Shown here piece after piece: positions 1,028 through 58,853 of a stretch of DNA of 64,000 nucleotides. Made by a program: the position numbers and the translations under genes. Below the pieces are notes generated by a model that was given only the letters and a program-made list of their open reading frames with translations, was not told the origin of the DNA and made no database searches. The DNA comes from Ryuthela nishihirai (lineage: Eukaryota; Arthropoda; Arachnida; Araneae; Heptathelidae). The DNA is taken from assembly GCA_038380435.1 (NCBI GenBank), contig JAWZYU010000034.1:1098704-1162703 (forward strand). The letters run 5' to 3'. Within the stretch, counting starts at the first letter, position 1. Each line of letters begins with the position of its first letter.

Positions 1028-1120
1028 ATGAGCCTCGAAGGTCATGTTGCCATAGTGACAGGTGGGGCTCAGGGAATTGGACTTGCAATCTCTACAGTTT
1101 TATTGGAAGAAGGCTGTAAG
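1028..1120 (+). CDS. HPGD: HPGD-like exon 1 (residues 1-31)
   Basis: This exon encodes the start Met, the first Rossmann beta strand (HVAIVTGG) and the glycine motif GGAQGIG that binds the cofactor pyrophosphate, ending at EEGCK. It ends in phase 0 at AAG with the donor gtaagt at 1121. The open frame continues past 1120 into the intron for 37 codons, which would give a 67-residue product if the intron were retained; that tail has no family resemblance. Confidence 0.88.
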
Positions 1121-28100: not shown

Positions 28101-31100
28101 GCCAGTCTGTGGTCTTCAGTGATGAAAGCAGATTCTGCATAGGAGCGTCTGATGGTCGTTTATGAGTCCGAAGGCGACAAGGTGAGCGGCTTCTTCCATC
28201 GTGCATCTGCCAGCGACATACAGGGCTGACGCTGGGCATCATGGTGTGAGGAGACATTCACTCTTGTAAATGTCTAGTGTTTGTACAGGGTACACTGAAT
28301 AGCAATACGTATGTCAGCGACATCGTACAGCCAGTGCCCTGCCATATTTTAGTGTAATCCCAAATGTGATATTTCAGAAGGATAACCCCCACCTATACTC
28401 TGCCCAGGCAGATCAACATGCTCTTCAGGCAGTGCACCAAATCCCTTGGCGAGCACGCTCTCCGGACAATTCTTCAATTGAGCATGTCTGGGACTGGGTC
28501 GGACAAAGACTCTTCCGCGGACCGCGGCAGGCAATGACCTTCGCTGAATTACGCATCCAAGTTGAAAGTGCATGGAATGGTATCCCCCAACATGATATCC
28601 AGCATTTGTAGACCGATTGCATGAAAGATTGGAAACTTGTATTACTGCTCAAGGCTCACTCTGTAAAACGTGTTACGAGGGAAACTAGAGTTGGTCTCTT
28701 GAAGGCTGTTGATCGTAGAGTGGCTTGGTTAACTTTAATCGATATTTTAACTCCCAGTTTTAGTAGAGATGCAGGTACTCAGTTAATTCACTCTAATTGA
28801 TTTACTTAACTCTGTAGTTAGGTAACAAACAAAGTTCAATAAAAAGAATCAGGATGATATAAAAATAAAAGGCTGCTCTACTAAGCGAAAGCTGTCTGAG
28901 CAAATTGATACTAGTTCGAGCATTTCACAAAGAGTTCTACTTTCATAGGCATCTGAAGTTAGGCCCCAAGTTCTTTAAAAGTTTAGTTACCTGGATAAAT
29001 CTTAAATTCCTCGTCCTCCAGGAAGGAAAAATCAGTTCAAAACGTTGCATGAAATCCTCGTCTCAGCTTGTGGCACTCGGATAAATAATATGTAAAAATG
29101 AGGGCAGACTTTTAACTTGAAGATATAAGCTCAGCTGATGCAGCTCAAAAGCAAACTACGGGTAAATTCAATGGCTTTACTCACAGCTGGGGTGGGCACT
29201 ATCTAGCTCAGATTTTATGACGCTCTCTGCAACTGACTAATGGGAAGAAGACTCAGAACTGTGCGAGGCTCAGGGCAATATTCTTTATTCCCAATCCAAA
29301 AACAGCTCTCCAGACTTACATTCATGTTCTCTATTAGTTTGGTGGCGGAGAGACGCCGAGAGGATGATAACCATATTAGGTATCCAACCATGTGATGTGG
29401 TTTCTCAGAGAAACTTAATCTCCCCACGGTCTGAAAATAATGGAGTCCATGTAAGGTTCATCAGTGGAAGAGAGATAAAACTCAAAAATAAACTCCTGGT
29501 TCGTTGACTTCTGTTAGGCTTCAGATAAAAAACTGTTTTCTTATAATATTCTAATTTCCATATTATTAGTTATCAAGGGATGCTAATACCATGATAACAC
29601 ATGTAATACTCATTAAAAGGTAAATTAAACATTGCATCACTTCACACGTGTGATCACTTTCCTTTCTCAACTAGTTGTTTCTACTAAATAAATCTCATAG
29701 ATTACGCTTCAGTCGTTAATTGTGTTCCTTTTTTCGATTTCCGCCAGTGTACATTACCTTAACTGTTAATGAAATTGACACCACGCAATGTGAAGACGAA
29801 GTAATGTGATTTGCCTTAATCTACTTCGCAGCTCGGACCAATCCTTGGATGCCAAATGGCTCTGAAGTTCATGGGCACCAGTCATGGCGGCAAAGGAGGA
29901 GCAGTGATCAATACAGCTTCAATTGCAGGTAATTAGCACTTCCTCTCATGTGATCAATACTGCTTCAATTGTCAGGTAATTGGCACTTCCTCTCATGTGA
30001 TCAATACAGTTTCAATTGCAGGTAATTGGCATTTCCTCTCATGTGATCGGTACAGCTTCAATTGTCAGGTAATTGGCACTTCCTCTCATGTGATCAGTAC
30101 AGCTTCAATTGTCAGGTAATTGGCATTTCCTCTCATGTGATCAATACAGCTTCAGTTGCAGGTAATTGGCACTTCCTTTCATGTGATCAATACAGCTTCA
30201 ATTGCAGGTAATTGGCAATTCCTCTCATGTGATCAATACAGCTTCAATTGCAGGTAATTGGCACTTCCTCTCATGTGATCAATATAGCTTCAATTGTCAG
30301 GCAAATGGCACTTCATTTCATGTGATCAATACAGCTTCAATTGTCAGGTAATTAGCCCTTACTCTCATGTGATCAATACAGTTTCAATTGCAGGTAATTG
30401 GCATTTCCTCTCATGTGATCGGTACAGCTTCAATTGTCAGGTAATTGGCACTTCCTCTCATGTGATCAATACAGCTTCAATTGCAGGTAATTGGCACTTC
30501 CTCTCATGTGATCAATACAGCTTCAATTGCAGGTAATTGGCACTTCCTCTCATGTGATCAATACAGCTTCAATTGTCAGGTAATTGGCACTTCCTCTCAT
30601 GTGATCAGTACAGCTTCAATTGTCAGGTAATTGGCATTTCCTCTCATGTGATCAATACAGCTTCAATTGCAGGTAATTGGCACTTCCTCTCATGTGATCA
30701 ATACAGCTTCAATTGCAGGTAATTGGCACTTCCTCTCATGTGATCAATACAACTTCAATTGTCAGGTAATTGGCACTTCCTCTCATGTGATCAATACAGC
30801 TTCAGTTGCAGGTAATTGGCACTTCCTCTCATGTGATCAATATAGCTTCAATTGTCAGGCAAATGGCACTTCATTTCATGTGATCAATACAGCTTCAATT
30901 GTCAGGTAATTAGCCCTTACTCTCATGTGATCAATACAGTTTCAATTGCAGGTAATTGGCATTTCCTCTCATGTGAGCGGTACAGCTTCAATTGTCAGGT
31001 AATTGGCACTTCCTCTCATGTGATCAATACAGCTTCAATTGCAGGTAATTGGCACTTCCTCTCATGTGATCAATACAGCTTCAATTGCAGGTAATTGGCA

Positions 31101-34100
31101 CTTCCTCTCATGTGATTAATACAGCTACAATTGCAGGTAATTGGCACTTCCTCTCATGTGATCAATACAGCTTCAATTGTCAGGTAATTGGCACTTCCTC
31201 TCATGTGATCAATACAGCTTCAATTGCAGGTAATTGGCACTTCCTCTCATGTGATCAATACAGTTTCAATTGCAGGTAATTGGCATTTCCTCTCATGTGA
31301 TCGGTACAGCTTCAATTGTCAGGTAATTGGCACTTCCTCTCATGTGATCAGTACAGCTTCAATTGTCAGGTAATTTGCATTTCCTCTCATGTGATCAATA
31401 CAGCTTCAATTGCAGGTAATTGGCACTTCCTTTCATGTGATCAATACAGTTTCAATTGCAGGTAATTGGCAATTCCTCTCATGTGATCAATACAGCTTCA
31501 ATTGTCAGGTAATTGGCACTTCCTCTCATGTGATCAATACAGCTACAATTGCAGGTAATTGGCACTTCCTCTCATGTGATCAATACAGCTTCAATTGTCA
31601 GGCAAATGGCACTTCCTCTCATGTGATCAATACAGCTTCAATTGTCAGGTAATTAGCCCTTACTCTCGTGTGATCAATACAATTTCAATTGTAGGCAATT
31701 GGCACTTCCTCTCATGTGACAAATACAGCTTCAATTGCAGGTAATTGGCACTTCCTCTCATGTGATCAATACAGCTTCAATTGTCAGGCAAATGGCACTT
31801 CCTCTCATGTGATCAATACAGCTTCAATTGCAGGTAATTGGCACTTCCTCTCATGTGATTAATACAGCTACAATTGCAGGTAATTGGCACTTCCTCTCAT
31901 GTGATCAATACAGCTTCAATTGTCAGGTAATTGGCACTTCCTCTCATGTGATCAATACAGCTTCAATTGCAGGTAATTGGCACTTCCTCTCATGTGATCA
32001 ATACAGTTTCAATTGCAGGTAATTGGCATTTCCTCTCATGTGATCGGTACAGCTTCAATTGTCAGGTAATTGGCACTTCCTCTCATGTGATCAGTACAGC
32101 TTCAATTGTCAGGTAATTGGCACTTCCTTTCATGTGATCAATACAGCTTCAATTGCAGGTAATTGGCACTTCCTCTCATGTGATCAATATAGCTTCAATT
32201 GTCAGGCAAATGGCACTTCATTTCATGTGATCAATACAGCTTCAATTGTCAGGTAATTAGCCCTTACTCTAATGTGATCAATACAGTTTCAATTGCAGGT
32301 AATTGGCATTTCCTCTCATGTGATCGGTACAGCTTCAATTGTCAGGTAATTGGCACTTCCTCTCATGTGATCAATACAGCTTCAATTGCAGGTAATTGGC
32401 ACTTCCTCTCATGTGATCAATACAGCTTCAATTGCAGGTAATTGGCACTTCCTCTCATGTGATTAATACAGCTACAATTGCAGGTAATTGGCACTTCCTC
32501 TCATGTGATCAATACAGCTTCAATTGTCAGGTAATTGGCACTTCCTCTCATGTGATCAATACAGCTTCAATTGCAGGTAATTGGCACTTCCTCTCATGTG
32601 ATCAATACAGTTTCAATTGCAGGTAATTGGCATTTCCTCTCATGTGATCGGTACAGCTTCAATTGTCAGGTAATTGGCACTTCCTCTCATGTGATCAATA
32701 CAGCTTCAATTGCAGGTAATTGGCACTTCCTCTCATGTGATCAGTACAGCTTCAATTGTCAGGTAATTGGCATTTCCTCTCATGTGATCAATACAGCTTC
32801 AATTGCAGGTAATTGGCACTTCCTCTCATGTGATCAATACAGCTTCAATTGCAGGTAATTGGCACTTCCTCTCATGTGATCAATACAGCTTCAATTGTCA
32901 GGTAATTGGCACTTCCTCTCATGTGATCAATACAGCTACAATTGCAGGTAATTGGCACTTCCTCTCATGTGATCAATACAGCTTCAATTGTCAGGCAAAT
33001 GGCACTTCCTCTCATGTGATCAATACAGCTTCAATTGTCAGGTAATTAGCCCTTACTCTCGTGTGATCAATACAGTTTCAATTGTAGGCAATTGGCACTT
33101 CCTCTCATGTGACAAATACAGCTTCAATTGCAGGTAATTGGCACTTCCTCTCATGTGATCAATACAGCTTCAATTGTCAGGCAAATGGCACTTCCTCTCA
33201 TGTGATCAATACAGCTTCAATGTCAGGTAATTAGCCCTTCCTCTCGTGTGATCAATACAGTTTCAATTGTAGGCAATTGGCACTTCCTCTCATGTGACAA
33301 ATACAGCTTCAATTGCAGGTAATTGGCACTTCCTCTCGTGTGATCAATACAGCTTCAATTGTCATTTAATTGTCAGGTAAAACCCACTCGCAGCCTTGAC
33401 CCGTGTTTAAACACACGAAATTTTCACAAGTCCGGAGACGGTTCTTCCAATTCTACCCTTTATGATAGGTTTCAATGTACCCAATGTAGACTTTTGAAAT
33501 GACGCGTCCTAAACCTCCAACTGCTGGGTTTATTAAAATTAGTCTCCATCGGGTTGGTGCCGTCAGATATCTATGTTTCCACGTAGTAACGCAACACCGA
33601 AGAAAAATCGGCTAAAAAATCGTCTCTCCCATCGTTTGCATGCGAGCGTATATCTCATCACTCTAATGAAATCGGATAAAAAATAACTTTTTTGTACGAG
33701 GTAGAATGTTATAGAAAGTAAGAATGCTAAAAAACTTTCATCATGAATGCATGTTAATGGAGTAGGGGACATTAGTTTAATACTTAGACTATAAAAAGAA
33801 TACATTCCTTCACGCGAGCGCGCCCTCACAACTTACCTCCACTAATCCACTGAAATTTTATTTGCAACTGGACTGATAGTCAAAATTTAGCAAACGAAAC
33901 CACTTAACCCACTCGCAGCCTTAACTATGCTAGCCTACCAACAACTTAACTATGCACTGACAAATATGCTCTGATCGAGTCTGAAAATGAAATGTTCGCG
34001 CTTAGAGCTTTTACAAGAGGCGATCTTCTGCCCTCGTTTCGACACTTTCTACACTCACCCCCATGTGATCTGACGGCGGACACAACAAGCTGGTGGTGTG

Positions 34101-40100: not shown

Positions 40101-43100
40101 GGGTTGAGGATCCGAACACGGATCTTTTAGGTCGGCCTTATTACCCCTCAATATTTTTCATCATGACGAGTATAATCAGATTTTATTAATTTTTTACCCA
40201 TCGGCATTTTCTGCGGGACAGTCTTTTAAAAACAGTTACTGCGGATAGTCCTAGTAAACGACAGCCAACAGTCACGGAGTTAAAAGAAATAAGTGTTACT
40301 GAAACGGACTTAAAATACGTGGGTTATAAAAATACGTATATTAATCTGAAAGGACTATCAGGTTCATTATAAGAAATACGTAGAAAAAGCTAGTTATAAA
40401 GAATACGAAGGTTGTAAAAAAGTACTAGGTTAATAACAGAAATGTCTGACCTGTTCGACACGCATCACACTATGGGATGATTTTTAATAAAGGTGAGGGA
40501 GTTTTGATGATTGTTTAATTACTAAGGAATTGATTAGTTTACTTGGAAAAATGAATACTGAAGGAGTTTAATAACTGTGAATTTTAATTATAAGGGAATC
40601 GTTTACCTAAATGAATAGCAGAGGATTTTTAATAGAGGTAACTTTTAATAGAAGAGATGTGAGGTTTTGATGGGTGTTTAATTAATAAGAATACAACTTT
40701 GTGAGTTTGATTTACTGTCAAGTTTTACAATTTGAGATCCGCATTAGGCATTCAAAAGAGTTCAGTGGTCTTGTAAAGGATAGAAACCGAAGGAGTTTTT
40801 AAATACGTGTTGTATGTCGCCGATTAAATTTTTAAGGGAGTGTTTAATAAAGCTTTGATTTTTACGTGAGGTGCTACTTTTACAATTGTATCATTCCTTT
40901 CTGTACAATTATTCTGAGACCTGCACCAGCCAATCGTTCCATGCAATTATTCTAAGACTTGCATCAGCGGGAAGGATGGGGGCTTAAAATATAGGTAGGA
41001 CTTAAAATATAGGTAGGGTTTAAAATATAGGTCAACCAGGAGGTCTGCAAGAGGAGGGAGGGCTTAAAATATAAGAACGACCGGGGGGGTTCGAAAACGA
41101 GAAATTAGACTTAAAATAAGGGGTTTTTGGGAAAATAGTACTTCTCACTGTCAACAGATGGCGCCAGGGGTTTTTTTAATAAGGGGGAAGGCTTAAAATA
41201 TAAGTGGGACGACCGGGGGGTCCGAAAACGAGAAATTAGACTTAAAATAAGGGGATTTTGGGGAAAAAATACTTCTCACTGTCAACAGATGGCGCCACTG
41301 AGGGTAAAACGGGGGGGGGCTTTTAATAAAGGGGGAGGAATTATTAATTAATAAGGGGGCGTGGCCTGTTACGTAATGATTATGTAATGATTACGTCATG
41401 TTACGTAATGTTACGTTATGTTACGTCATAGGGGAGGGGAGGAAGTGGGCGTGGCCTGTGACGTCATAGGGGGAAGCACTGTGGGGAATCCGTCGGTTGT
41501 GACTATACTACTCTCGCCTCGGATATGCTTATTGTCTTCCCTCTCCGAAAGAGAAATTTAAGGTTATTTTTAAGAATCTGACCTTTATCTGTCCATATGG
41601 TCTCTTGCAGGCCGAGAATATCTAAATTATAACAGTGGAATTGTTGTGCGAGGACATCAAGAGAATAATCTCTGTGCAGAGTCCTCACATTCCAAATACC
41701 TATGTAGAGAAAATGGTTAGTGAGATGTTTAAAGAAACTATTTTATTGAGAGATGGAATGCCGACAATTTGAAACAACTCCCTAGTTGTAGAGGTATGGG
41801 GCAAAGACCCATTCCACCACCACTAAAGGCTGAAGCCATCTACACTGGAAGACTTCCTCCAATGTGGAATTTGACGATGCCCGTAGAAGAAAAAGTTCAG
41901 GTGCCTGCAATGACCTCTGCTCAGGAGTATACTCAGAGTATACCAGCTGATAAAACATATCCTGTGAATCTATGCACTTCGGTCTGTCAACACACAAACA
42001 AATAGAAAACACAGCGGAAGATTTTCCCTCCACAGAAACCCATCAGTGCAACAAATTCAGGATTCATAATCAAGCTCAGAGTCATTATTCAATTCCGGTT
42101 GGTGTATATGGTCAGTACCAGGAACCTATGTGGTTGACTACTCCTCAGCAGGGTAGGAAAAGAAAAATGGCCATAGGCGACAAGATCAGGGCCACACTGA
42201 TATGGCAGCCCTCCTCTTCCTTCATTTCCACAAGAGAGTATCTCTTTTGAGAGGTGCTAACGGCCTGCAGCAAGAGAAGGCGGGGTCGGACATTAGGTGC
42301 TAGGCCTGGCCGGTTCTCTGCATCATCACAGGGGATTGGAGAATAGCAATCGTTTTCATATTTCCTGTTTTTAATGAAAAAAGAAGGAAGGAGTGCTGGC
42401 AATTTTTTAACCTGTAACATTCCCCGTGTCAGAAGCTTTCATTTGACGAATCGCCTGCTCCTTTCAGTCCTCTCGTTACGGAAATGTAGCGGAGCAATCG
42501 TTTTCATATTTCCCCTTTCTTTACGAGTGAAGAAAGCATGTGAGTTTTTTTTTTATAACCTCTTACATTTTCCCGCGTCACAAGATTTCTTTGGACCCAT
42601 GAATCATTGCGTTTTTTGTCCGACGCTTTCGAAAGGCATGATGGAATTATCGTTTTCACAAATCCACAAATGACGATCGGAAAGCAACTGGAAGACGAGT
42701 AAAAATTGATATTATGTTCCTTTAGATAAGACAATTGATGAACACTAAATTTCGAAATTCGCTTATTATTTGTTGTCTGAACTTTTTGCGGGGCTGTCTC
42801 AAGTGGCATATTAGACGAACAATACTTTTGAGACTATAGTACAACTGCAGAGGTTTTGAACATTTCCTGGCAGGCTGAATGAATTTTAATTAGAAAAGAC
42901 TCTTTTATGAATGTCAGTTCAATTCATCTCAATAATAGCGTTTCTTTTCCTCTAGGTTTCGTCTTCCATCCTAGTATACCATCGTATGTGGCAACTAAAC
43001 ATGGCGTAGTTGGCCTCACCAGGAGCTATGGGGTATGTCAAGCATTCATCTATAATAATAATAATATTAAAAGAATGCGCTATGGGGTATGTCAAGCATT

Positions 43101-46100
43101 CATCTATAATAATAATATTGAAAGAATGCACTATGGGGTATGTCAAGCATTCATCTATAATAATAATAATATTGAAAGAATGCACTATGGGGTATGTCAA
43201 GCATTCATCTATAATAATAATAATATTGAAAGAATGCACTATGGGGTATGTCAAGCATTCATCTATAATAATAATATTGAAAGAATGCGCTATGGGGTAT
43301 GTCAAGCATTCATCTATAATAATAATAATATTGAAAGAATGCGCTATGGGGTATGTCAAGCATTCATCTATAATAATAATATTGAAAGAATGCACTATGG
43401 GGTATGTCAAGCATTCATCTATAATAATAATAATATTGAAAGAATGCACTATGGGGTATGTCAAGCATTCATCTATAATAATAATAATATTGAAAGAATG
43501 CGCTATGGGGTATGTCAAGCATTCATCTATAATAATAATAATATTGAAAGAATGCACTATGGGGTATGTCAAGCATTCATCTATAATAATAATAATAATA
43601 TTGAAAGAATGCGCTATGGAACATTTCAAACATTCATTAAACATAACACTGATAAAATGAGCTATACGGTATGTCGAACCTTTGTTTAACATAATACTGA
43701 TAGTATGAACTATGTGATATATCGAAACTTTTGTTAACATAATACTGAAAGAATGAGCTTTAGGGTATGTCGAACCTTTGGCTAACATAATACTGATAGA
43801 ATAAACAATGGGGTGGTCCATATGTGCTTGTGGGGGTTAGACACACTAGACTCGTGATGTGCAGTTCCCAGGTTCGAGTCCCAGTTGTGTCATCATTGGA
43901 ATTTATCTGCGATGAACCCTTGCCCTTCCGTTAGTCAGAAAGAGGGCACCAATGGCCTTGGAAACACATCTCCACCTCAGCATATGTAAAACACTGAACA
44001 GCATACATGAGAGCGATACCCCCTTGCACGTTAAAGAAAACGCTGGATGGCTTTGATGGGAGGCTACCATCTGTCTCTCAACAACTGTGCAGTGGTTCTT
44101 TTGGGGTCCTTGTAACTCGACCATTTAGTCAACTGCTCGCAAAAAATAATATCGCTCACAGCTAAAACAACCCAACCAAGGATTGACCCATGGATGAATT
44201 GAAAATAATTTAATCTTTCTGGAGATGTTTCATTTGGTGTGATCATAAGTGAGAGCCAAAGAGATTCATCATTAACTAATTTTCGTAATATACTGCATAA
44301 ATGCAATGCTTTCTATTGAAATTGCCCCTTCTAGAAGAAATTCTTGCACGCGAACCCAAATAGTCGTTGTTGTAACTATAGACATAGAGAAGCAATGGTT
44401 GCAAGGGCAGAGAATTCTACTAATGTTTAAAAAGCAAAGAGAGAGGTACATCACTGGGTAGTATGGAGCAATGAGACGTAACAGGCGAGGTAAGAAGGCG
44501 CGGGAGTGAGTCAGACAGGTGATCCTGTGTGATATGCAGCCATGCCTCCTTCACCCTTGCTGCCAGTTCTGCGACAGCCATAGGCAGCTGAGCACTGGAT
44601 GTAAATGTGCCATCCCATCGTATCGCAATCGTGTTCAATGGGTGACTGATCTGGGGGAAAGGTGGACTAAGGAAGGAGAACCACACATAGGTGTTGTTCA
44701 TTGGTGTCCCTACATTTGTGTTCCTACATTGGTACACATAGGTGTTTCTACATTGCCCAATTACGGATTATTCCCTTAATTAGACAATGCGGGCCGCAAA
44801 AATATCAGGCCGTCTCCTTAGGGGAAGACGTTTTTTATTAAAATGAAGTCCAATGATGAACAACACTCGGTTAAATGGAAAACTTAATAATAAAAATAAC
44901 AATATTTATTCATAGACAAAATATCTAAAAGTACAAGGGATTGCTGCCGGGACTTTTAAGAATCTATGCAGAGTGTGGAGAATATATAGAGTGTGGATGT
45001 ATATACCTAAAGACCAAAATTAGACTGCATAATAGTTTGGTTCTTTCTAGGGTTATTTATGGTATTGAAACTTTCACGTTTTGTAAACAAGATAACAATA
45101 AACTAGATGCTTTTGATTCTAGATGCTTACGTAGTATCTTGGGTATTAGATGGTTTAACTTTGTAACTAATGATGAGGTTAGGCAACCTCCTTTAAGCAG
45201 TATATTGTGCAGAGAGAGACTCCGCTGGTTTGGCCATGTTGCCCGTATGGATAATTATAGATTGGCGAATAGGTTATGAACAGTGTGCCTAAAGGCCTCA
45301 GAAAGAGGGGGAGACCAAGGATGCGGTGGGCAGACTATGCCAAACAGGATATTGTTAGAATTGGTGTGCAGTGGCCAGACGCAGCAGATATAGCTCAGGA
45401 CAGACTTGCTTGGAGAATTAAATTGCACGGTCTGGTTGGACCTCCGTAGCCCATGGCTGCTTGAAGATGATGATGATGATGTGGGGACTGCAACACAAAT
45501 CGTACCATTAAAAATCTGTTGAGTTATTTACATTGCTATTGAAAATGATCTGTTTACAGCCAAACTACTGTTTAGATTTGACTGAAATTAAAAGCATTCA
45601 AAACAAAATTTTTAGAAACCAGAAAATCTCAATGCATATTCTAAAATTAGTAATTACTGTACTATATTCAGAATTCTATTGATGAATCAGCTTTGTGTGT
45701 CGAAATTTTTACTTTGATATCTTTATGACAAAAAAATTTAAAGTCCATTGATCATAATAATAATGCTAAAAGGTGTAAATGCCAATCTTCCTATGAATCC
45801 AAATTACATGTAGTTGCATTATGAAAAATCATTGCAAGAAAAAGGAAGGACATTTAAAATTCTCTCTGTGATTTAGAAAACCAGTTCCATTGAAAGTTTA
45901 ATAAATGGAAAAAGATTGCAGATGTTGAAAGTTCTCTTATATCATGGCTTTTTTGGAATATTTCAAGATTTGACTAATTCTGTAACAACTCTTATTCGTT
46001 ATACCACAGGGTACGCGGTAAAATATTAGGGGGTTCGTCGTGAGAGCTCAAAAGTCGCTAGATCTAGAACAAAGTCGCTAATTTTTTGTGTTCATCGATA

Positions 46101-52100: not shown

Positions 52101-55100
52101 GTGAAGCATAAAAGGTTTAGAACCACTGATATATATGTTTTATTTTATTCCCATTGTTATACTATAACTATAGTTTTATCTATCTATACAAGGGGTACGA
52201 CAATTACATACACATTTCAAGGGGGTACGTGAAGCATAAAAGGTTGAGAACCACTGATATATATGTTTTATTTTATTCCCATTGTTATACTATAACTATA
52301 GTTTTATCTATCTATACAAGGGGTACGCCAGTTACATACACATTTCAAGGGGGTACGTGAAGAATAAAAGGTTGAGAACCACTGATATATATGTTTTATT
52401 TTATTCCCATTGTTATACTATAACTATAGTTTTATCTATCTATACAAGGGGTACGACAATTACATACACATTTCAAGGGGGTACGTGAAGCATAAAAGGT
52501 TGAGAACCACTGATATATATGTTTTATTTTATTCCCCTTATTATACTATAACTATAGTTTTATCTATCTATACAAGGGGTACGCCAGTTACATACACATT
52601 TCAAGGGGGTACGTGAAGCATAAAAGGTTGAGAACCACTGATATATATGTTTTATTTTATTCCCATTGTTATACTATAACTATAGTTTTATCTATCTATA
52701 CAAGGGGTACGCCAGTTACATACACATTTCAAGGGGGTACGTGAAGAATAAAAGGTTGAGAACCACTGATATATATGTTTTATTTTATTCCCATTGTTAT
52801 ACTATAACTATAGTTTTATCTATCTATACAAGGGGTACGACAATTACATACACATTTCAAGGGGGTACGTGAAGCATAAAAGATTGAGAACCACTGATAT
52901 ATATATGTTTTATTTTATTCCCATTGTTATACTATAACTATAGTTTTATCTATCTATACAAGGGGTACGCCAGTTACATACACATTTCCAGGGGGTACGT
53001 GAAGCATAAAACGTTGAGAACCACTGATATATATGTTTTATTTTATTCCCATTCTTATACTATAACTATAGTTTTATCTATCTATACAAGGGGTACGCTA
53101 GATACATACACATTTCCAGGGGGTACGTGAAGCATAAAAGATTGAGAACCACTGATATATATATGTTTTATTTTATTCCCATTGTTATACTATAACTATA
53201 GTTTTATCTATCTATACAAGGGGTACGCCAGTTACATACACATTTCAAGGGGGTACGTGAAGCATAAAAGGTTGAGAACCACTGATATATATATGTTTTA
53301 TTTTATTCCTCTTATTATACTATAACTATAGTTTTATCTATCTGTACAAGGGGTACGCCAGTTACATACACATTTCCAGGGGGTACGTGAAGCATAAAAC
53401 GTTGAGAACCACTGATATATATGTTTTATTTTATTCCCATTGTTATACTATAACTATAGTTTTATCTATCTATACAAATGGTATCCCAGTTACATACACA
53501 TTTCCAGGGGGTAAGTGAAGAATAAAAGGTTGAGAACCACTACGTTTTACAATGCTAGTAATTATTTTATAATCAACTGTTACTTTAGATGGAATCCTGA
53601 TAACAAACTTCATAGTTCTTGAGGTAATGTACTCAAAAATTATAAGCAGAATTAAAAATATCGTATTAAATATATATGAAGATAAGGAATGGGAATAAAA
53701 ATAAAATTAAAAATTGAGTTGTGAAAAGAAAAGTCGACTTGAATCTTCCATTATATCTGATGATGGAAATAATATTTATAAAATTTAGAAGTGTTTAGGA
53801 ATTTCAAAATGTTTTGAAAGATCCAATGCATGCATCTGATATCATTCTTCTATCTGTCCCACAGCACTCGTACCACTTCTTGAAGAACAACGTTACTTTT
53901 GCCGCCCTCTGCCCCTCTTATGTGAGGACTGATATGGTCATGAAGTCTCAGAACTGCACTTTGAGCCCAGAGACAGACGTCACAGAAATACCAGACATCA
54001 TGGAGTAAGTCGGTTGACCTTCAACCTCACTACATTGAAGGTTTGCTAGTAGAAAATTAAAATCCAGTAACGATTATTCTCATTTCGTTTGAGCTTGAAT
54101 GGCCAGAATTGTACTCTGAAATTTACGTATTATTAGAGATACCAGATTAAAGTGAGGGGCGGGGGTGGCTCAGTCGGTAGCGCGCCAGGCTTGTAATCTG
54201 TAGTTCCCAGGTTCGAGTCCCAGCTGGGTCAGCGTTGAGATTTATCTCCGCAAAATTCCCCGCCCTGCCCACGGTCAGTAGGGGACACCGATGGGCTTGT
54301 AAAGGCAGCCGTCCGTCGGATGGGACGTTAAGCCGTGGCCCCGTGTGTGGGAGAGAGCCATACCCTGTGCACGTTAAAGAACACGCTGGATGGCCTTGAC
54401 GGGAGGCTACCATCTGTCTCTCAACAGCTGTTCCAGTGGGTCCCCTCCCCCAACCTTCTCTGAGCCTTCGGGTCCATGTCACCTGGCCATTTAGCCCATG
54501 GTGTGCAAAAAGTGCCGCTCAGAGGTAAAACAACCCAACCCAGATTAAAGTGAATGACCATAAAGGAACAGGCTGATTTAAATGCATTTATCATTCAATC
54601 ACGAAAACAGCTTTTATTAATAGAATTTCAGAGGAAAGCTGGAAAAGACAAATATGGAATGCTTGTTTTTAAATAGAAAACATTTGTTAATGTCGAAGCA
54701 ATATTTAAAGTGAAACTTCACGTTATGGAGCATCCAAACAGGCATATTTTATTGGTACCTATCAAACCAAACGAAAAATTCTGTCTGTTTTAATCATAAG
54801 CAGACAAATTTCAGTTTCTTCGACCTGCTGGGGGTAATTATTCTTTTTCCATTTCGTTTCGGAAATGAAAACCACATTTCATCAAATGTCCTGGTTTATG
54901 TCGTAAGAATTTAACCCTTTCACGACTAAGGGAAACATTTTTCCCATTTTAAAATTGGTGATTGTCGTGGATTGGTCGTAAATTGGACCTTATCTGCATT
55001 TTTTATACAGAATGTCAAAATAGAACGTAAGCCTAACGCAATTACGTAAACGGGAACGTTTAGAAAACAAAAACAGAACTGTCAGGACGCATAATATATG

Positions 55101-58100: not shown

Positions 58101-58853
58101 CAGCAAACTGGAGCGTGTACAGTTGCTGTACACGCTCCAGATATGTTTTCTGAATTCTGTAATCAACCATAGTGTTCGGATACTTTTTTGAGCGACTGTA
58201 GGTGGTCATATTATTTTGATACTAGATCGTATGGGCTCACTCACGAAAATGTTGAGCGTGTGCAGTTACCGTTCACAGCAAACTGGAGCGTGTGCAGTAA
58301 CTGCACACGCTCCAGTTTGCTGTGAACGGTAGCTGGAGCGTGACAGTTGCTGTACACGCTCCAGATATGTTTTCGAATTCTGTAATCTACCATAGTGTTC
58401 GGATATTTTTTTTGAGCGACTCTAAACGCCATTTTAAAATTTATGAAAAGCATTGTTTTGGTTTTGCACTAAAATTTATTTGAACTGCGATAATAGTGAT
58501 GTTAACTGATTGATGAGGTTGCACTAAAAGCTTGGACTCTTATTAAGCATTCACCAGAATGCCGAACATTGGAAGAATGTTCGTGCCATTCTGGTTATAA
58601 ATTATTTGGAAACAAATGAACATCGAAGAAGAATTCTTAACCTTTTATTTTCAGCATGTTTATTGCAAACATCTCACTTTTAAGATTCATGAATTAATTA
58701 TTTTCGTGGTTTATTTTTAGACCGTCGTTCGTTGCCAAAGGAGTTCTTCAGTTGCTGAAAGATGGCCGCAATGGGGCCACGCTGGTCGTCACGAAACAAA
58801 AAGGGTATCAGTACGTTGGAGTGCAAAGTGAATTCAAGGACCTCGTGGAATGA
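1028..58853 (+). CDS. HPGD: HPGD-like short-chain dehydrogenase/reductase, seven exons
   Basis: Seven exons join in phase with GT-AG introns to give a 256-residue protein; human HPGD has 266. By family this is a cytosolic NAD-dependent oxidoreductase of 15-hydroxyprostaglandins and related hydroxy fatty acids. Visible motifs are the Rossmann glycine motif TGGAQGIG (residues 11-18), an acidic Asp after beta-2 in VCVADIN that fits NAD rather than NADP, NNAG at 90-93, Asn107, Ser138 in NTASIA, and Tyr151/Lys155 in YVATK. These catalytic numbers equal those of human HPGD. The start ATG has A at -3 and directly precedes the Rossmann strand. Human Gln148, a substrate-contact position, is Ile here, so the real substrate may not be a prostaglandin. 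Intron lengths are about 18.4, 4.1, 6.0, 13.0, 10.8 and 4.7 kb, mostly repeats. SDR family assignment is very sure; HPGD orthology is likely rather than proven. Confidence 0.88.
1510..1815 (-). repeat. tRNA-derived SINE, family 2, copy A
   Basis: Read on the minus strand this begins with a tRNA-like head: ATGGCCGAGTGGTTAGC resembles a Pol III A box, followed by the B-box-like GGGACCTGGGTTGATCC. The body, including CTGACAGGCTCCTGTCAGAC, is shared with the copy at 61190-61399. The tail runs into AT-rich sequence. Confidence 0.65.
2601..2989 (-). repeat. tRNA-derived SINE, family 1, copy 1, with perfect target duplication
   Basis: On the minus strand the element starts GGGGCGGGGGTGGCTCAGTC (A box TGGCTCAGTCGG) and contains the B box GGTTCGAGTCC, then a 300-bp body ending in ACAACCCAACCC. 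It is flanked by a perfect 12-bp direct repeat ACACTATGGTGA at 2589-2600 and 2990-3001, which is a retrotransposition target-site duplication. Confidence 0.9.
3381..14340 (+). repeat. 37-bp tandem satellite array in intron 1 (~296 units)
   Basis: The unit is 37 bp, for example ttattacaactgatccctg followed by ttgagtcacctgtgtggc, and runs about 10.96 kb with few gaps. The first and last units are degenerate. Main variants are GGC/GAC/CGT before TTATTA, TGAGTCA/TGGGTCA/TCAGTCA, and TACAAC/TACTAC. Variant order repeats over long distances: the rare ACCCGTGTGG unit occurs near 9735, 10584, 11361, 12361 and 13211, so higher-order units of 21-27 monomers exist. Most units contain TGAGTCA, the AP-1 consensus, next to CACCTG, an E-box. 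Confidence 0.97.
14350..14484. mobile_element. Half of a Tc1/mariner-type foldback MITE
   Basis: A perfect palindrome (CTTCGTGTCACGTGACACGA core) is followed by the right arm ending in TTTTTTGAGCGACTG and a TA at 14485-14486. This is the same terminus as the complete MITE at 48290-48501. The left arm is missing; the element abuts the end of the 37-bp array. Confidence 0.75.
14490..14869 (+). pseudogene. Tc1-like transposase, C-terminal half, frameshifted
   Basis: The translation shows HDNAPGYIARIVTERF, QWPAQSSDLNPNDHLWDE and a downstream helix, the C-terminal DDE half of Tc1/mariner transposases. I count 36 residues between the Asp of HDNAP and the position of the third catalytic residue, which suggests a DD36E-type family. 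That residue reads Asp rather than Glu. Past about 14815 the frame shifts, and the usual KGGVTRY-type C-terminus reads in another frame to a stop at 14867-14869. The N-terminal half is absent, so it cannot encode a working enzyme. Confidence 0.8.
15250..15636 (-). repeat. tRNA-derived SINE, family 1, copy 2
   Basis: This has the same head, B box and body as the copy at 2601-2989, in minus orientation. I see no clear flanking direct repeat, so the ends may have been reworked. It lies between a Tc1 remnant and the 74-bp array. Confidence 0.85.
15690..18119 (+). repeat. 74-bp tandem satellite array in intron 1 (~33 units)
   Basis: The unit is 74 bp, beginning atgatacgagtttccagagg and ending cccatacaattgctata. 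Marker variants (CGAGAGTCCAG at 16513 and 17845; CTCCGTTGACTTC near 16319 and 17651) recur exactly 1,332 bp apart, which is 18 units. A block of 18 units was therefore duplicated in tandem. Confidence 0.96.
18120..18550 (-). pseudogene. DNA transposon 5' end with HTH-like transposase N-terminus
   Basis: On the minus strand a terminus TACAGGGTGGGCAAAAAGTC starts at the TA at 18551-18552. Further in, frames read MASSQDKVPGEVGILKPYL and, after frame changes, NKNPPFQRSIRDxHKKFL, then RRSTSDNDVEHIL. This resembles the N-terminal helix-turn-helix region (DUF4817-type) of arthropod mariner-related transposases. The element is cut off by the 74-bp array at 18119. The match is from memory of the family pattern and is moderate. 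Confidence 0.45.
18898..19131. mobile_element. Tc1/mariner-type MITE, long variant, partial
   Basis: It contains the arm ending TTTTTTTGAGCGATTGTA, then the inner module with nested inverted repeats of GAGCGTGTGCAGTTAC and GTTCACAGCAAACTGGAG. The same module recurs at 20416-21536 and 57819-58422. Confidence 0.65.
19550..19673 (+). CDS. HPGD: HPGD-like exon 2 (residues 32-72)
   Basis: The acceptor is a pyrimidine-rich stretch ending ctctcag before 19550, and the donor is gtaaat at 19674. The exon encodes VCVADINDDKGDE and then FAHCDVTSEQQYE, the beta-2/alpha-C/beta-3 part of the Rossmann fold. The Asp of ADIN is the usual NAD-selecting residue, and CDVT is the conserved Asp that contacts adenine in classical SDRs. 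It ends in phase 1. Confidence 0.88.
19763..19780 (+). repeat. Poly-C tract of 18 C
   Basis: An uninterrupted run of C follows exon 2. Such tracts are prone to sequencing length error. Confidence 0.9.
19845..20171 (-). pseudogene. hAT-like transposase fragment (ZMYM1/DUF4371 type)
   Basis: The minus-strand frame reads FETVGDIQG, then LLNFKGPELSDCRDQGYGNG and TNSKGAYQ. The CRxQGYxNGxNxKG pattern is characteristic of domesticated and transposon hAT proteins of the ZMYM1/DUF4371 group. The following ILQNTRAVSLMLRTQ would match the ILxxNPRAxxxxCxxHSLNL segment with lost cysteines. Only about 110 residues remain, without the catalytic ends, so this is a remnant. Confidence 0.5.
20416..21536. mobile_element. 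Multimer of Tc1/mariner-type foldback MITEs
   Basis: The termini CAGTCGCTCAAAAAAG (first copy CAGTCGTTCAAAAAAG) start at 20416, 20706 and 20943, each preceded by TA, and the inverse terminus ends at about 21235 and at 21536, each followed by TA. Between them lie repeated palindromic cores (CTTCGTGTCACGTGACACGA) and inner modules with GAGCGTGTGCAGTTAC inverted repeats. The layout indicates several insertions into one another or replication of a composite. There is no coding capacity. Confidence 0.8.
21752..22192 (-). repeat. Diverged family 1 SINE with ~90-bp internal insertion
   Basis: Both ends of the family 1 SINE are recognisable (GGTTGTTTTACCTCTGAGAG at the plus-strand left, and a degraded tRNA head at the right). 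About 90 bp at 21797-21890 are foreign; they match 22366-22455 closely. Confidence 0.7.
22600..22975 (-). repeat. tRNA-derived SINE, family 3, with duplicated tail
   Basis: On the minus strand a tRNA-like head reads GCGGCCGATAGCTCAGCGGT (A box TAGCTCAGCGG) and, further on, the B box GGTTCGTATCC at about 22680-22690. A tail segment GAAGATATCACTC..CAATTTAACGTCGATCAA is present twice, near 22614 and 22936. A diverged relative is at 56985-57140. Confidence 0.65.
23438..23652. mobile_element. pogo/Tigger-like foldback MITE, 215 bp
   Basis: Two ~97-bp arms are almost perfect inverted repeats around a ~17-bp loop, flanked by TA at 23436-23437 and 23653-23654. The terminus reads CCCCTATCCCTCGATTTACA. 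Each arm also contains a second copy of TCGATTTACACGGTACT. The TA target and CCTCGATTTA-type terminus fit the pogo group; this is an inference without a transposase. Confidence 0.7.
23736..23842 (+). CDS. HPGD: HPGD-like exon 3 (residues 73-108)
   Basis: The acceptor is ttactag before 23736 and the donor is gtgagt at 23843. The exon encodes FGKIDILINNAGIV, the SDR NNAG motif at residues 90-93, and ends VLEVNL, where the Asn is residue 107, the structural/catalytic Asn of the SDR tetrad. It enters in phase 1 and leaves in phase 0. Confidence 0.88.
24527..24913 (+). repeat. tRNA-derived SINE, family 1, copy 4
   Basis: This is a full-length family 1 element with the A box reduced to a poly-G run before GCTCAGTCGGTAGCG, and the B box GGTTCGAGGCC. 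It ends ACAACCCAACCC and runs directly into a Tc1 fragment. Confidence 0.85.
24914..25068 (+). pseudogene. Tc1-like transposase fragment between two SINEs
   Basis: The frame reads VWSAISQTSGSGVIIKGSPI, then AQRYATNILQPVAVLFVQQ, which corresponds to the segment of Tc1-like transposases between the first and second catalytic Asp (VWGxI...G.L.AQRY...IL.P...P...Q). Both ends are cut by SINEs. Confidence 0.65.
25069..25454 (+). repeat. tRNA-derived SINE, family 1, copy 5
   Basis: Full-length plus-strand copy with an intact A box (TGGCTCAGTCGG) and B box (GGTTCGAGTCC). Confidence 0.88.
25455..25714 (-). other. Unassigned open frame, 86 codons before running into SINE
   Basis: The minus-strand frame starts MTTVCAPRASRVNDAKLVKI and continues through LAFMPLDKLQLVLGLVG and RYRALGGAEVTVGYDYH before entering SINE sequence. 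I do not recognise a family. The stretch is less AT-rich than its surroundings. It may be part of another mobile element. Confidence 0.25.
26130..27611 (+). pseudogene. RTE-like LINE reverse transcriptase and C-terminus, degraded
   Basis: Frames read KSPGIDEITTEMLR, FTRAIVIPIFKKGDRSSCDN and QCGFRSGRGCVDQIF, then a later YANDLA at the catalytic box and finally KLDAFDFRCLRSILGIRWFD near 27260-27320. This is a non-LTR retrotransposon RT followed by the usual C-terminal region. The catalytic YADD is YAND, and several frameshifts and stops are present. The 3' end is cut by a SINE at 27612. RTE clade is my best guess. Confidence 0.8.
27612..27994 (+). repeat. tRNA-derived SINE, family 1, copy 6
   Basis: Full-length copy inserted at the end of the LINE remnant and followed at once by Tc1-like sequence. 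Confidence 0.88.
27996..28670 (+). pseudogene. Tc1-like transposase, broken
   Basis: Segments read VHWREERQSVVFSDESRFCI (first catalytic Asp in FSDESRF), MVWGDIH-like in another frame, FQKDNPH at the second Asp, and RARSPDNSSIEHVWDWVGQR with the third catalytic Glu. Frames change at least three times and stop codons interrupt. Spacing between the second Asp and Glu is 32 residues, close to the DD34E of Tc1 with a small loss. Confidence 0.75.
28671..29831. other. Intron 3 remainder without recognised features
   Basis: AT-rich sequence. A frame near 28680-28770 reads GLLKAVDRRVAWLTLIDIL, which might be retroelement debris, but I cannot assign it. The final bases form the acceptor of exon 4. 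Confidence 0.4.
29832..29928 (+). CDS. HPGD: HPGD-like exon 4 (residues 109-140, with catalytic Ser138)
   Basis: The acceptor is cttcgcag before 29832 and the donor gtaatt is at 29929. The exon encodes LGCQMALKFMG, a Gly/Lys-rich loop, then GGAVINTASIA with catalytic Ser138. The last 25 nt (29904-29928, codons for VINTASIA plus one base) together with the following 21 intron bases are the founder unit of the tandem array filling the start of intron 4. It ends in phase 1. Confidence 0.88.
29929..33378 (+). repeat. 46/47-bp minisatellite made from the exon 4 donor junction (~74 units)
   Basis: Each unit carries the last 25 bases of exon 4 (codons for VINTASIA plus one base), an intact GT donor (gtaatt) and 21 intronic bases (gtaattggcacttcctctca plus t). 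Units ending ATTGCAG are 46 bp; units ending ATTGTCAG are 47 bp. Marker variants such as the unit with CAAATGGCACTTCATTTC recur at about 30300, 30858 and 32206, which shows block duplication. The exon 4 end is effectively unit zero. In the exon 4 frame the first unit has a TAG straight after the donor, so only the first donor gives an open message. Confidence 0.97.
33383..39960. mobile_element. 6.6-kb imperfect palindrome, probable non-autonomous foldback transposon
   Basis: The left arm (33383 to ~35958) and right arm (~36687 to 39960) are inverted copies around a ~725-bp loop. Paired landmarks include ACAAGTGGTACCGTGCGAA at 35939 with its inverse ending at 36705, and GAGAAGAGTGGTGGGTCC at 34137 with its inverse at 39195. 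Outer ends read AAAACCCACTCGCAGCC and its inverse. A second, inner pair of CCCACTCGCAGCC ends (33908 and 39441) is flanked by TTAA on both sides, as in piggyBac insertions. The right arm has about 720 extra bases (38467-39190). No transposase-like frame exists. Confidence 0.85.
39961..40860. repeat. Third partial copy of the palindrome arm and AT-rich flank
   Basis: The segment ~40045-40350 matches 38310-38575 of the right arm in direct orientation, including AGGATCCGAACACGGATCTT and GAAATAAGTGTT. The rest to 40860 is AT-rich without recognised features. Confidence 0.65.
40960..41480 (+). repeat. G-rich block with short repeats and CRE-like palindromes
   Basis: The phrase GGCTTAAAATATAGG occurs repeatedly. 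A ~90-bp unit beginning GACCGGGGGG and containing TCGAAAACGAGAAATTAGAC and CAACAGATGGCGCCA is present twice (about 41083 and 41210, 127 bp apart). From 41365 follow ACGTAATGATTACGTCATG and GTGACGTCATAGGGG, close to cAMP-response-element palindromes. Strand asymmetry (G over C) is strong compared with the flanks. I cannot assign an origin. Confidence 0.6.
41503..41720 (-). pseudogene. LINE endonuclease N-terminal fragment
   Basis: On the minus strand the frame reads IWNVRTLHRDYSLDVLAQQF, then HCYNLDILGLQETIWTDKG. WNVRTL and ILGLQET are the first two motifs of the apurinic endonuclease of RTE/CR1-type LINEs. The sequence upstream on the same strand to ~42420 may be the 5' region of the same element, but I cannot show it. 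Confidence 0.7.
42956..43032 (+). CDS. HPGD: HPGD-like exon 5 (residues 141-166, catalytic Tyr151/Lys155)
   Basis: The acceptor is cctctag before 42956 and the donor gtatgt is at 43033. The exon encodes GFVFHPSIPSYVATKHGVVG and then LTRSYG. YVATK is the catalytic YxxxK. The end of the exon (CTATGGG) plus the donor is repeated many times in the following array. The reading frame stays open from exon 5 through the array to 43689. It ends in phase 0. Confidence 0.88.
43033..43812 (+). repeat. 51/54/57-bp minisatellite made from the exon 5 donor junction (~15 units)
   Basis: Each fresh unit repeats the end of exon 5 (CTATGGG), the donor gtatgt and intronic sequence with a (TAA)n run; n sets the length at 51, 54 or 57 bp. 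Eleven units including the authentic junction have a perfect CTATGGG/GTATGT donor. They translate in the exon 5 frame as repeats of YGVCQAFIYNNNNIERMH. Distal units from 43615 are diverged and shorter, so homogenised copies sit next to the exon. All fresh units are multiples of three and lack stops in this frame up to 43687, and the complement strand is also open. Confidence 0.96.
43820..44176 (+). repeat. Diverged family 1 SINE
   Basis: The B box GGTTCGAGTCC and the body (GCACGTTAAAGAAAACGCTG, GGGAGGCTACCATCTGTCTC, ACAACCCAACC) are clear, while the A box is lost. It is much more diverged than the other copies, so it is older. Confidence 0.8.
44460..44665 (-). pseudogene. Tc1-like transposase C-terminal fragment
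   Basis: On the minus strand one frame reads PDQSPIEHDCDTMGWHI, and after a frameshift the next reads AVAELAARVKEAWLHITQDH and SDSLPRLL. These are the third catalytic Glu region and the following helix of Tc1-like transposases. Only the C-terminus remains. Confidence 0.6.
44940..45483 (+). pseudogene. 5'-truncated RTE-like LINE 3' end with GAT repeat tail
   Basis: Frames read KLDAFDSRCLRSILGIRWFN and RERLRWFGHVARMDNYRLAN, the same C-terminal region as the LINE at 26130-27611, here better preserved. After a frameshift, KRGRPRMRWADYAKQDIVRI-type sequence follows to about 45450. The element ends in GATGATGATGATGATG, the short simple-repeat tail typical of RTE elements rather than poly-A. Confidence 0.8.
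45484..46140. other. AT-rich intron sequence leading into the 128-bp array
   Basis: No gene or known repeat seen. Around 46010-46080 a GGGTACGCGGTAAAATATTA segment with GGGGGTTCGTCGTGAGAGC may belong to the parent element of the array. Confidence 0.35.
46145..53545 (+). repeat. 128-bp tandem satellite array in intron 5 (~56 units)
   Basis: The unit is 128 bp, containing AAGGGGTACGCCAGTTACAT, GGGGGTACGTGAAGCATAAA, GGTTGAGAACCACTG and TATAACTATAGTTTTATC. About 16 units from 46200 to 48288 are nearly identical (TTCCCCTTATTATAC type). Units after 48504 are more varied (TTCCCATTGTTATAC and others) and show a ~511-bp, four-unit higher-order period. GGTTGAGAACCACTG is the inverse of CAGTGGTTCTCAACC, a common hAT terminus, so the unit likely derives from a hAT-type MITE end. 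Confidence 0.96.
48290..48501. mobile_element. Tc1/mariner-type foldback MITE, 212 bp, inserted in satellite
   Basis: The element starts CAGTCGGTCAAAAAAGTATA and ends with the inverse, with TA at 48288-48289 and 48502-48503. It is one long hairpin around CTTCGTGTACCGTACACGAA. Neighbouring satellite units give the empty site GGGGGTACGTGAAGC, so the TA duplication and the exact ends are shown directly. Confidence 0.95.
53865..54004 (+). CDS. HPGD: HPGD-like exon 6 (residues 167-212)
   Basis: The acceptor is tgtcccacag before 53865 and the donor gtaagt is at 54005. The exon encodes HSYHFLKNNVTFAALCPSYV and then RTDMV, matching the SDR segment after the active-site helix (beta-6 and the CPG-type turn, here CPS). 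Joining exon 5 directly to exon 6 gives the same residue count in this segment as human HPGD, so the first exon 5 donor gives the ancestral product. It leaves in phase 2. Confidence 0.87.
54156..54539 (+). repeat. tRNA-derived SINE, family 1, copy 7, with perfect target duplication
   Basis: Full-length copy flanked by a perfect 14-bp direct repeat CCAGATTAAAGTGA at 54142-54155 and 54540-54553. A and B boxes are intact. It appears recent. Confidence 0.92.
54915..55448. mobile_element. piggyBac-type MITE, copy 1
   Basis: The element begins CCCTTTCACGACTAAGGG and ends with GGTCCTGAAAGG, a short inverted terminus, and is flanked by TTAA at 54911-54914 and 55449-55452. It is ~534 bp, AT-rich and non-coding. 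A close copy is at 59928-60455. Confidence 0.85.
55453..56382. other. Intron 6 AT-rich stretch, nothing recognised
   Basis: No family resemblance seen in any frame. The 61-codon open frame at 56045-56230 is AT-driven. Confidence 0.4.
56383..56638 (+). repeat. 19-bp minisatellite (~13.5 units)
   Basis: The unit is gaagattcttctcttgcat, repeated with rare substitutions. Three units make 57 bp, so all frames repeat every 19 codons and stay open on the minus strand by chance. Confidence 0.95.
56985..57140 (-). repeat. Diverged tRNA-derived SINE, family 3
   Basis: It matches 22655-22800: GAGCCAGGTGGGA, ACCTTCTGAT, TCTAACCGC, and AATTGATG followed by ACTTTCTACC and ACAGTACACA. The tRNA-like head is decayed. 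Confidence 0.6.
57290..57414. mobile_element. Half of a Tc1/mariner-type foldback MITE
   Basis: Palindromic core plus the right arm ending TTTTTTGAGCGACTG with TA at 57415-57416, like the copy at 14350-14484. Confidence 0.75.
57819..58422. mobile_element. Composite Tc1/mariner-type MITE
   Basis: It starts CGGTCGCTCAAAAAA after TA (57817-57818) and ends TTTGAGCGACTC before TA (58423-58424). Inside are further right termini followed by TA and GGTGGTCATATTATTTTG modules, so at least three units are joined. The modules are the same as in 20416-21536. Confidence 0.8.
58721..58853 (+). CDS. HPGD: HPGD-like exon 7 (residues 213-256 and stop)
   Basis: The acceptor is tatttttag before 58721 and the stop TGA is at 58851-58853. 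The exon encodes EPSFVAKGVLQLLKDGRNGA, then TLVVTKQKGYQYV and a short C-terminal tail ending DLVE. This matches the late helix and last beta strand of HPGD proteins, where a conserved stretch on gaining or storing cofactor-bound state is followed by a variable tail. Confidence 0.86.

What the first reader, a model, noticed from the sequence alone, without database searches (positions are those of the whole stretch)
42956..43812. Exon 5 splice donor amplified into an in-frame array that could lengthen the protein in steps
Seen: the array at 43033-43812 repeats the last 7-8 nt of exon 5 with the donor gtatgt. Eleven donors including the authentic one are identical. Fresh units are 51, 54 or 57 bp, all multiples of three, and no stop occurs in the exon 5 frame until 43687. 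Exon 6 joins in phase 0. So splicing from the k-th donor would insert k blocks of 17-19 residues (VCQAFIYNNNNIERMHYG type) between residues 166 and 167 without a frameshift. Direct use of the first donor gives the length found in human HPGD. Inference: the locus may make a ladder of isoforms, or copy number may vary without harm because every choice is in frame. The insertion point is in the helix after YxxxK, so longer forms may be inactive.
Basis: partly seen in the sequence, partly recalled or inferred. Interest (0 to 1): 0.88.

Follow-up and report, generated by a model that had tools for sequence, protein, structure and literature searches.

The report
Tandem-copied splice donors in arachnid gene
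In an arachnid enzyme gene, the signal that marks where an exon ends has been copied many times in a row at two neighbouring exons; this resembles a rare repeat type described in lancelets, and nothing yet shows that the extra signals are used.

Summary
Exon 5 (42956-43032) of a seven-exon 15-hydroxyprostaglandin-dehydrogenase-like gene (256 aa) ends in CTATGGG|GTATGT. This junction recurs as 11 identical donors in 51/54/57-bp units, then as decayed units to 43812. All extensions are multiples of three; the first stop is at 43687.

The finding missed that exon 4 carries a far larger array of the same type (29904-33372): 46/47-bp units holding the exon 4 end plus its donor, with 65 AG|GT sites. 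All 64 downstream ones run into a stop, so in one splicing step only the first gives a full protein. Frame-keeping is therefore not a general property.

In the genome searches both arrays match only themselves. They are absent from the same donors of two paralogues and from 20 sampled P450 exon ends.

Best reading: minisatellites seeded at exon-intron junctions ("mirages", known in amphioxus), removed as intron behind the first donor. The isoform ladder is arithmetically possible but unsupported: 19 aligned relatives lack such an insert, and three of six array frames are open anyway. A passage read says the intron-proximal of two comparable donors is favoured, so RNA is decisive.

The parts
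1028..1120 (+). exon 1 (coding part, from ATG), donor AAG|GTAAGT
19550..19673 (+). exon 2
23736..23842 (+). exon 3 (NNAG motif)
29832..29928 (+). exon 4, ends ATTGCAG|GTAATT, phase 1
29904..33372 (+). exon 4 array: 46/47-bp units = last 25-26 nt of exon 4 + first 21 nt of intron 4; 75 AG|G[TC]AA junctions, 65 of them AG|GT (10 have GC); 64 AG|GT lie downstream of the authentic one (the last just past the TRF end) and all 64 run into a stop
42956..43032 (+). exon 5 (YxxxK catalytic motif), phase 0 at its end
43026..43620 (+). exon 5 array, fresh part: 11 identical donors CTATGGG|GTATGTCAAGC, units of 51/54/57 bp
43621..43812 (+). exon 5 array, decayed part: four 48-bp units, 0.73-0.82 identical over aligned bases to the fresh unit; first in-frame stop at 43687
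53865..54004 (+). exon 6, joins exon 5 in phase 0
58721..58853 (+). exon 7, to the end of the stop codon; total protein 256 aa

Best explanation
The exon 5 array is a minisatellite seeded by tandem duplication of the exon 5 / intron 5 junction (about 7-11 nt of exon plus 40-47 nt of intron), later lengthened by slippage or unequal exchange and by AAT microsatellite changes inside the unit. The exon 4 array is a second event of the same kind in the same gene. The copies lie downstream of the authentic donor, so the gene stays intact as long as the first donor is used; I infer that the main mRNA joins 43032 to 53865 and the array is removed with the intron. Shown: anatomy, identity of donors, frame, no match elsewhere in the genome searches, absence from the same donors of two paralogues, intact seven-exon reading frame. 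Inferred: origin by tandem duplication, use of the first donor, no function of the extra donors.
For: Units contain the exon end plus donor at both exons. The exon ends are the conserved coding originals: the paralogues have AGAAGCTACGGG|GTGAGT and AGAAGCTATGGG|GTAAGT at exon 5, and TTTATG|GTAAGT and ATTGCAG|GTAAAT at exon 4, all single by eye over the intron starts printed, and many relatives share TRSYG or a close form. In the exon 5 array the eleven units next to the exon are 0.96-1.00 identical to the consensus unit and the four distal ones 0.73-0.82. Matches in the genome searches lie only in the window's own arrays: 7 of 7 and 37 of 37 (these searches skip very common words). At exon 4 only the first donor avoids a stop, and the gene has a complete 256-aa frame, so accurate first-donor choice, or later correction, is implied if the gene is active. 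Amphioxus arrays of this type were reported not to disturb regular splicing (PMC3087553 passages; PMC3902484 passage).
Against: No transcript data. A passage read says that with two comparable donors the intron-proximal (downstream) one is favoured, and that how is not known (PMC6002489). In human segmental duplications, 66% of the intron modifications by tandem repeats at exon-intron boundaries also have transcripts that retain the repeat (PMC2812944 passages). The exon 5 donor matches 6 of 9 consensus positions, like three other donors of this gene, and its copies are identical in context, so sequence alone does not favour the first. The exon 4 array shows no clear fresh-to-decayed order; only its last unit stands out (0.78). 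The gene could be inactive despite its intact frame.
Confidence: 0.72

Rival explanations
1. Isoform ladder: downstream exon 5 donors are used to a useful or regulated degree and give proteins of 274-433 aa with 17-19-residue blocks inserted after residue 166.
For: All extensions in frame and open to the donor at 43669; donors identical; the insertion point matches a break between two helices in a modelled spider relative, so the fold might bear it; intron-proximal preference stated for comparable donors; repeat-retaining transcripts reported in human genes.
Against: No insert above 2 residues in 19 relatives; two paralogues have a single donor there; three of six frames are open, so openness is cheap; the two substitutions seen among the fresh units (GAA/AAA and CGC/CAC) both change the residue, so no sign of constraint on the peptide, though two changes have little power; the exon 4 array does not keep frame.
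Confidence: 0.12
2. Fail-safe arrays: donor choice is sloppy at both exons, and only arrays that forgive errors survive. At exon 5 errors are in frame. At exon 4 every leftover begins with GT and ends with AG at the exon edge, so a second splicing step can remove it and restore the exact mRNA.
For: 64 of 64 leftovers at exon 4 are GT...AG blocks and 0 of 10 at exon 5; exon 5 extensions are all 0 mod 3.
Against: Follows trivially from exon 4 ending in AG and exon 5 in GG; only two arrays; by eye the unit ends have a weak pyrimidine tract and an inner AG; the shortest leftover is 47 nt.
Confidence: 0.1
3. Assembly artefact or collapsed/expanded repeat.
For: Tandem arrays are error-prone; no reads available.
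Against: Units differ by ordered point changes, mosaic order at exon 4 (30 unit types among 74 units) and a decayed distal end at exon 5; the contig is 53 Mb long. Copy number may still be wrong.
Confidence: 0.04

Closest known systems
Mirages: minisatellite-like tandem duplications of exon/intron boundaries in amphioxus (Adh3, globin BflGb6/BflGb9, troponin C, PGBD5)
   Same: Tandem units span the exon-intron boundary and many carry splice signals; units of tens to about 160 bp; contiguous with the authentic exon; regular transcripts remain (PMC3087553, PMC3902484 passages).
   Different: Here in a chelicerate; two neighbouring exons of one gene; 11 and 65 donors, against 6 and 3 repeat units in the two BflGb6 haplotypes; exon 5 units are all in frame. 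Length instability and RNA not tested here.
Internal tandem repeats at exon-intron boundaries of human genes in segmental duplications
   Same: Minisatellite at the boundary whose copy number differs between paralogues (PMC2812944 passages).
   Different: There transcripts show new introns and retained repeats; average unit 30 bp repeated 4 times.
Intron gain by tandem genomic duplication of AGGT
   Same: Exon 4 units repeat AG|GT 64 times (model in PMC3443670 passages).
   Different: No gained intron seen; the arrays sit behind introns shared with a paralogue; the fresh exon 5 array has no AGGT.

Membership tests
Mirage minisatellite | Tandem repeat units span an exon-intron boundary and include the splice signal | tested here: met
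Mirage minisatellite | Array is contiguous with the authentic exon end | tested here: met
   43026 and 29904 lie inside exons 5 and 4
Mirage minisatellite | Unit size in the reported range (10-72 bp Adh3, 150-160 bp globins) | tested here: met
   48-57 bp and 46/47 bp; range
Mirage minisatellite | Regular splicing is not disturbed | not testable with these tools
   no RNA for this species
Mirage minisatellite | Length instability between haplotypes or somatically | not testable with these tools
   one haplotype, no reads
15-hydroxyprostaglandin dehydrogenase-like SDR gene | adh_short domain with NNAG and YxxxK and gapless alignment to 15-PGDH at the exon 5/6 junction | tested here: met
   PF00106 E 2.6e-16 for the exon 4-6 peptide; two alignments printed; NNAG, Y and K invariant among 20 aligned sequences. 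Enzyme activity not tested.
Tandem genomic duplication intron gain | Duplicated AGGT used as donor and acceptor of a new intron | tested here: inconclusive
   AG|GT present at exon 4, absent from the fresh exon 5 array; use not testable

The most novel reading that the evidence does not exclude
The two arrays show two different ways in which a run of identical donors can be harmless: frame-neutral at exon 5 (all extensions multiples of three and open) and self-correcting at exon 4 (every wrong AG|GT donor leaves an exact GT...AG block that can be spliced out afterwards, including stepwise as zero-length exons). If selection keeps only arrays of these two kinds, junction-seeded minisatellites would be a natural record of how often donor choice fails in large introns.
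Probability: 0.12. Interest if true: 0.72.

Novelty: new member of a known kind. Interest (0 to 1): 0.48.

Why it matters
Eleven identical and sixty-five AG|GT donors in one gene are a natural experiment on how the spliceosome picks one donor among equals, a question described as open in the passage read. The two arrays differ in what an error costs (in-frame insert against a stop), so reads from one gene would separate accurate choice from tolerated error. The case would also extend to chelicerates a repeat type that the passages read report from amphioxus.

Tried and rejected
Rejected: that frame-keeping marks selection for a ladder (exon 4 control; three of six open frames). Under a single-base shuffle of one 54-bp unit the chance of an open frame is 0.15, times one third for the length, about 0.05, which is not strong evidence. 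Rejected: a dispersed repeat inserted at the donor. Rejected: RNA structure as the driver (three stretches folded, z-scores 0.48, 0.06 and -0.21). The estimate that two of six arrays straddle a donor by chance is 0.0004; I picked the six long arrays from the 28 TRF rows, four of them not at exon ends, and the case was picked by a reader, so this is only a guide.

Prevalence: no array at 20 P450 exon ends (20 of the 92 matches, 451 bp each; a donor visible by eye in 19; TRF gave two short repeats of 1.9 and 2.6 copies, neither at the donor), and no TRF row overlapping or within 300 bp of the matched stretch in 19 PF00106 loci (some may be intronless). A rate of several per cent is not excluded. 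For the second paralogue the TRF printout was cut after the first locus, so its exon 4 donor was judged by eye. Kinase matches are mostly long single-exon copies and were not used.

Not reached: a genome-wide pattern search for other donor arrays (unanswered nine times). The original amphioxus Adh paper is not held; it is known here only through passages citing it. Literature searches; no arachnid case was among the rows listed, but several listings show only the top rows (20 of 1,456) and the library holds only open-licence papers. No paper was read whole: passages only.
Full report
What the locus is. The window lies at C34:1098704-1162703 of a 3.11-Gb assembly. It holds one gene on the + strand with seven coding exons: 1028-1120, 19550-19673, 23736-23842, 29832-29928, 42956-43032, 53865-54004 and 58721-58853 with the stop. 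All six introns are GT-AG and the joined frame is open for 256 aa. The product is a 15-hydroxyprostaglandin-dehydrogenase-like short-chain dehydrogenase: PF00106 E 2.6e-16 for the exon 4-6 part, gapless alignment across the exon 5/6 junction to a 15-PGDH chain and a photoreceptor dehydrogenase chain. Of the 22 best database hits (46-59% identity), 17 bear spider names, one a horseshoe crab's (52%) and four none (120 of 5,978 hits were listed; that the genera are spiders is recalled). So the organism is a chelicerate, probably an arachnid; its name is not known to me.

The exon 5 array. The last seven nt of exon 5 and the start of intron 5 (CTATGGG|GTATGTCAAGC) occur 11 times identically, in 51, 54 or 57-bp units, then decay over four 48-bp units to 43812. 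Length differences among fresh units are copies of AAT; point differences are two, E/K and R/H in the exon frame. Ten identical downstream donors would give 274 to 433 aa. The first in-frame stop is at 43687.

The exon 4 array, not in the finding. At 29904 the last 25 nt of exon 4 plus 21 nt of intron begin an array of 46/47-bp units to 33372. Of 75 junction copies, 65 are AG|GT including the authentic one; ten have GC. For all 64 other AG|GT sites the extended exon runs into a stop, because the first intron codons read GGT AAT TAG. So in the same gene a larger array exists in which only the first donor is usable in a single step. This is the natural control for the exon 5 claim: a gene can carry such an array without frame-keeping.

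Is it more than chance? In the window and in 277,590 bases of other DNA from this genome, both strands, three donor-like motifs in a row occur only in these two arrays and only on the sense strand; the motif was chosen after seeing the arrays. In the genome searches 7 of 7 and 37 of 37 matches lie inside the arrays (these searches skip very common words). A post hoc estimate for two of six window arrays straddling a donor is 0.0004; the other four long arrays are not at exon ends. The frame itself is weak evidence: three of six frames of the fresh array are open, and a shuffled unit of this length is open 15% of the time.

Are the arrays shared? A complete tandem paralogue about 28-77 kb beyond the window has the same seven exons with single donors at exons 4 and 5. 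A second paralogue near C34:671-699 kb, found in pieces, also has single donors at exons 4 and 5. So four of four matching donors have no array, and the arrays arose in the window gene after the copies parted, or were lost in both others. At 20 P450 exon ends no array is seen, nor at the matched stretch in 19 PF00106 loci.

How it most likely works. Tandem duplication across the junction gives [exon end + donor] copies on the intron side. The authentic exon stays whole, so the gene works if the first donor is used. Amphioxus genes with such repeats were reported to splice normally (passages of PMC3087553, and PMC3902484). Against easy confidence: a passage read says that of two comparable donors the intron-proximal one is favoured (PMC6002489), and in human genes 66% of boundary-repeat intron changes also have repeat-retaining transcripts (passages of PMC2812944). 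With identical context, what would favour the first donor here is unknown; exon size limits are one candidate (inference). RNA must decide.

What longer forms would do. In a confident model of the closest listed relative, a Stegodyphus protein (pLDDT 95.3), the place matching the exon 5/6 junction falls in a two-residue break between helix 148-164, which holds the catalytic Tyr and Lys, and a short helix 167-173. The insertion point is therefore not inside the helix as the finding says, and a longer form need not be misfolded. That relative was modelled, not the window protein.

A bolder reading. At exon 4, each wrong AG|GT donor leaves a block that starts with GT and ends with AG exactly at the exon edge (64 of 64), so a later splicing step could remove it; at exon 5 no leftover ends in AG (0 of 10) but all are in frame. 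Two arrays cannot show that selection acts this way, and the pattern follows from the last bases of each exon. A genome-wide set would test it; my pattern search for such a set did not complete (nine tries).

Verdict. The feature is real and, in the small samples taken here, uncommon. It belongs with mirage-type junction minisatellites on the features that could be tested. The ladder is possible but has no positive evidence beyond frame.

Noticed in passing
3383-14310: 37-bp tandem array of about 295 copies (10.9 kb) in intron 1, 96% matches; not at an exon edge.
   Followed up: partly
15695-18118: 74-bp tandem array, about 33 copies, in intron 1.
   Followed up: no
46143-53541: 128-bp array in intron 5, TRF rows of 16.8 and 39.2 copies; unit ends in GGTTGAGAACCACTG, which I recall as like a hAT transposon end; the unit also occurs in seven other held loci from this genome.
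   Followed up: partly
C34:1191-1240 kb (L029-L034): Complete tandem paralogue of the gene with the same seven exons, introns of very different sizes.
   Followed up: yes
C34:671-699 kb (L047-L049): Further paralogue on the minus strand, found in pieces.
   Followed up: partly
33946-34269 / 39112-39403 and 35243-35772 / 36870-37393: Near-identical open frames on opposite strands, suggesting a large inverted repeat inside intron 4.
   Followed up: no
22665-22737 (-): tRNA-Thr (tgt) call by ARAGORN inside intron 2; may be a tRNA-derived repeat.
   Followed up: no
43033-43620: Fresh exon 5 units carry GCATTC ... GAATGC arms around the AAT run, a possible hairpin next to each donor; folding no better than shuffles in the stretches tried.
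   Followed up: partly
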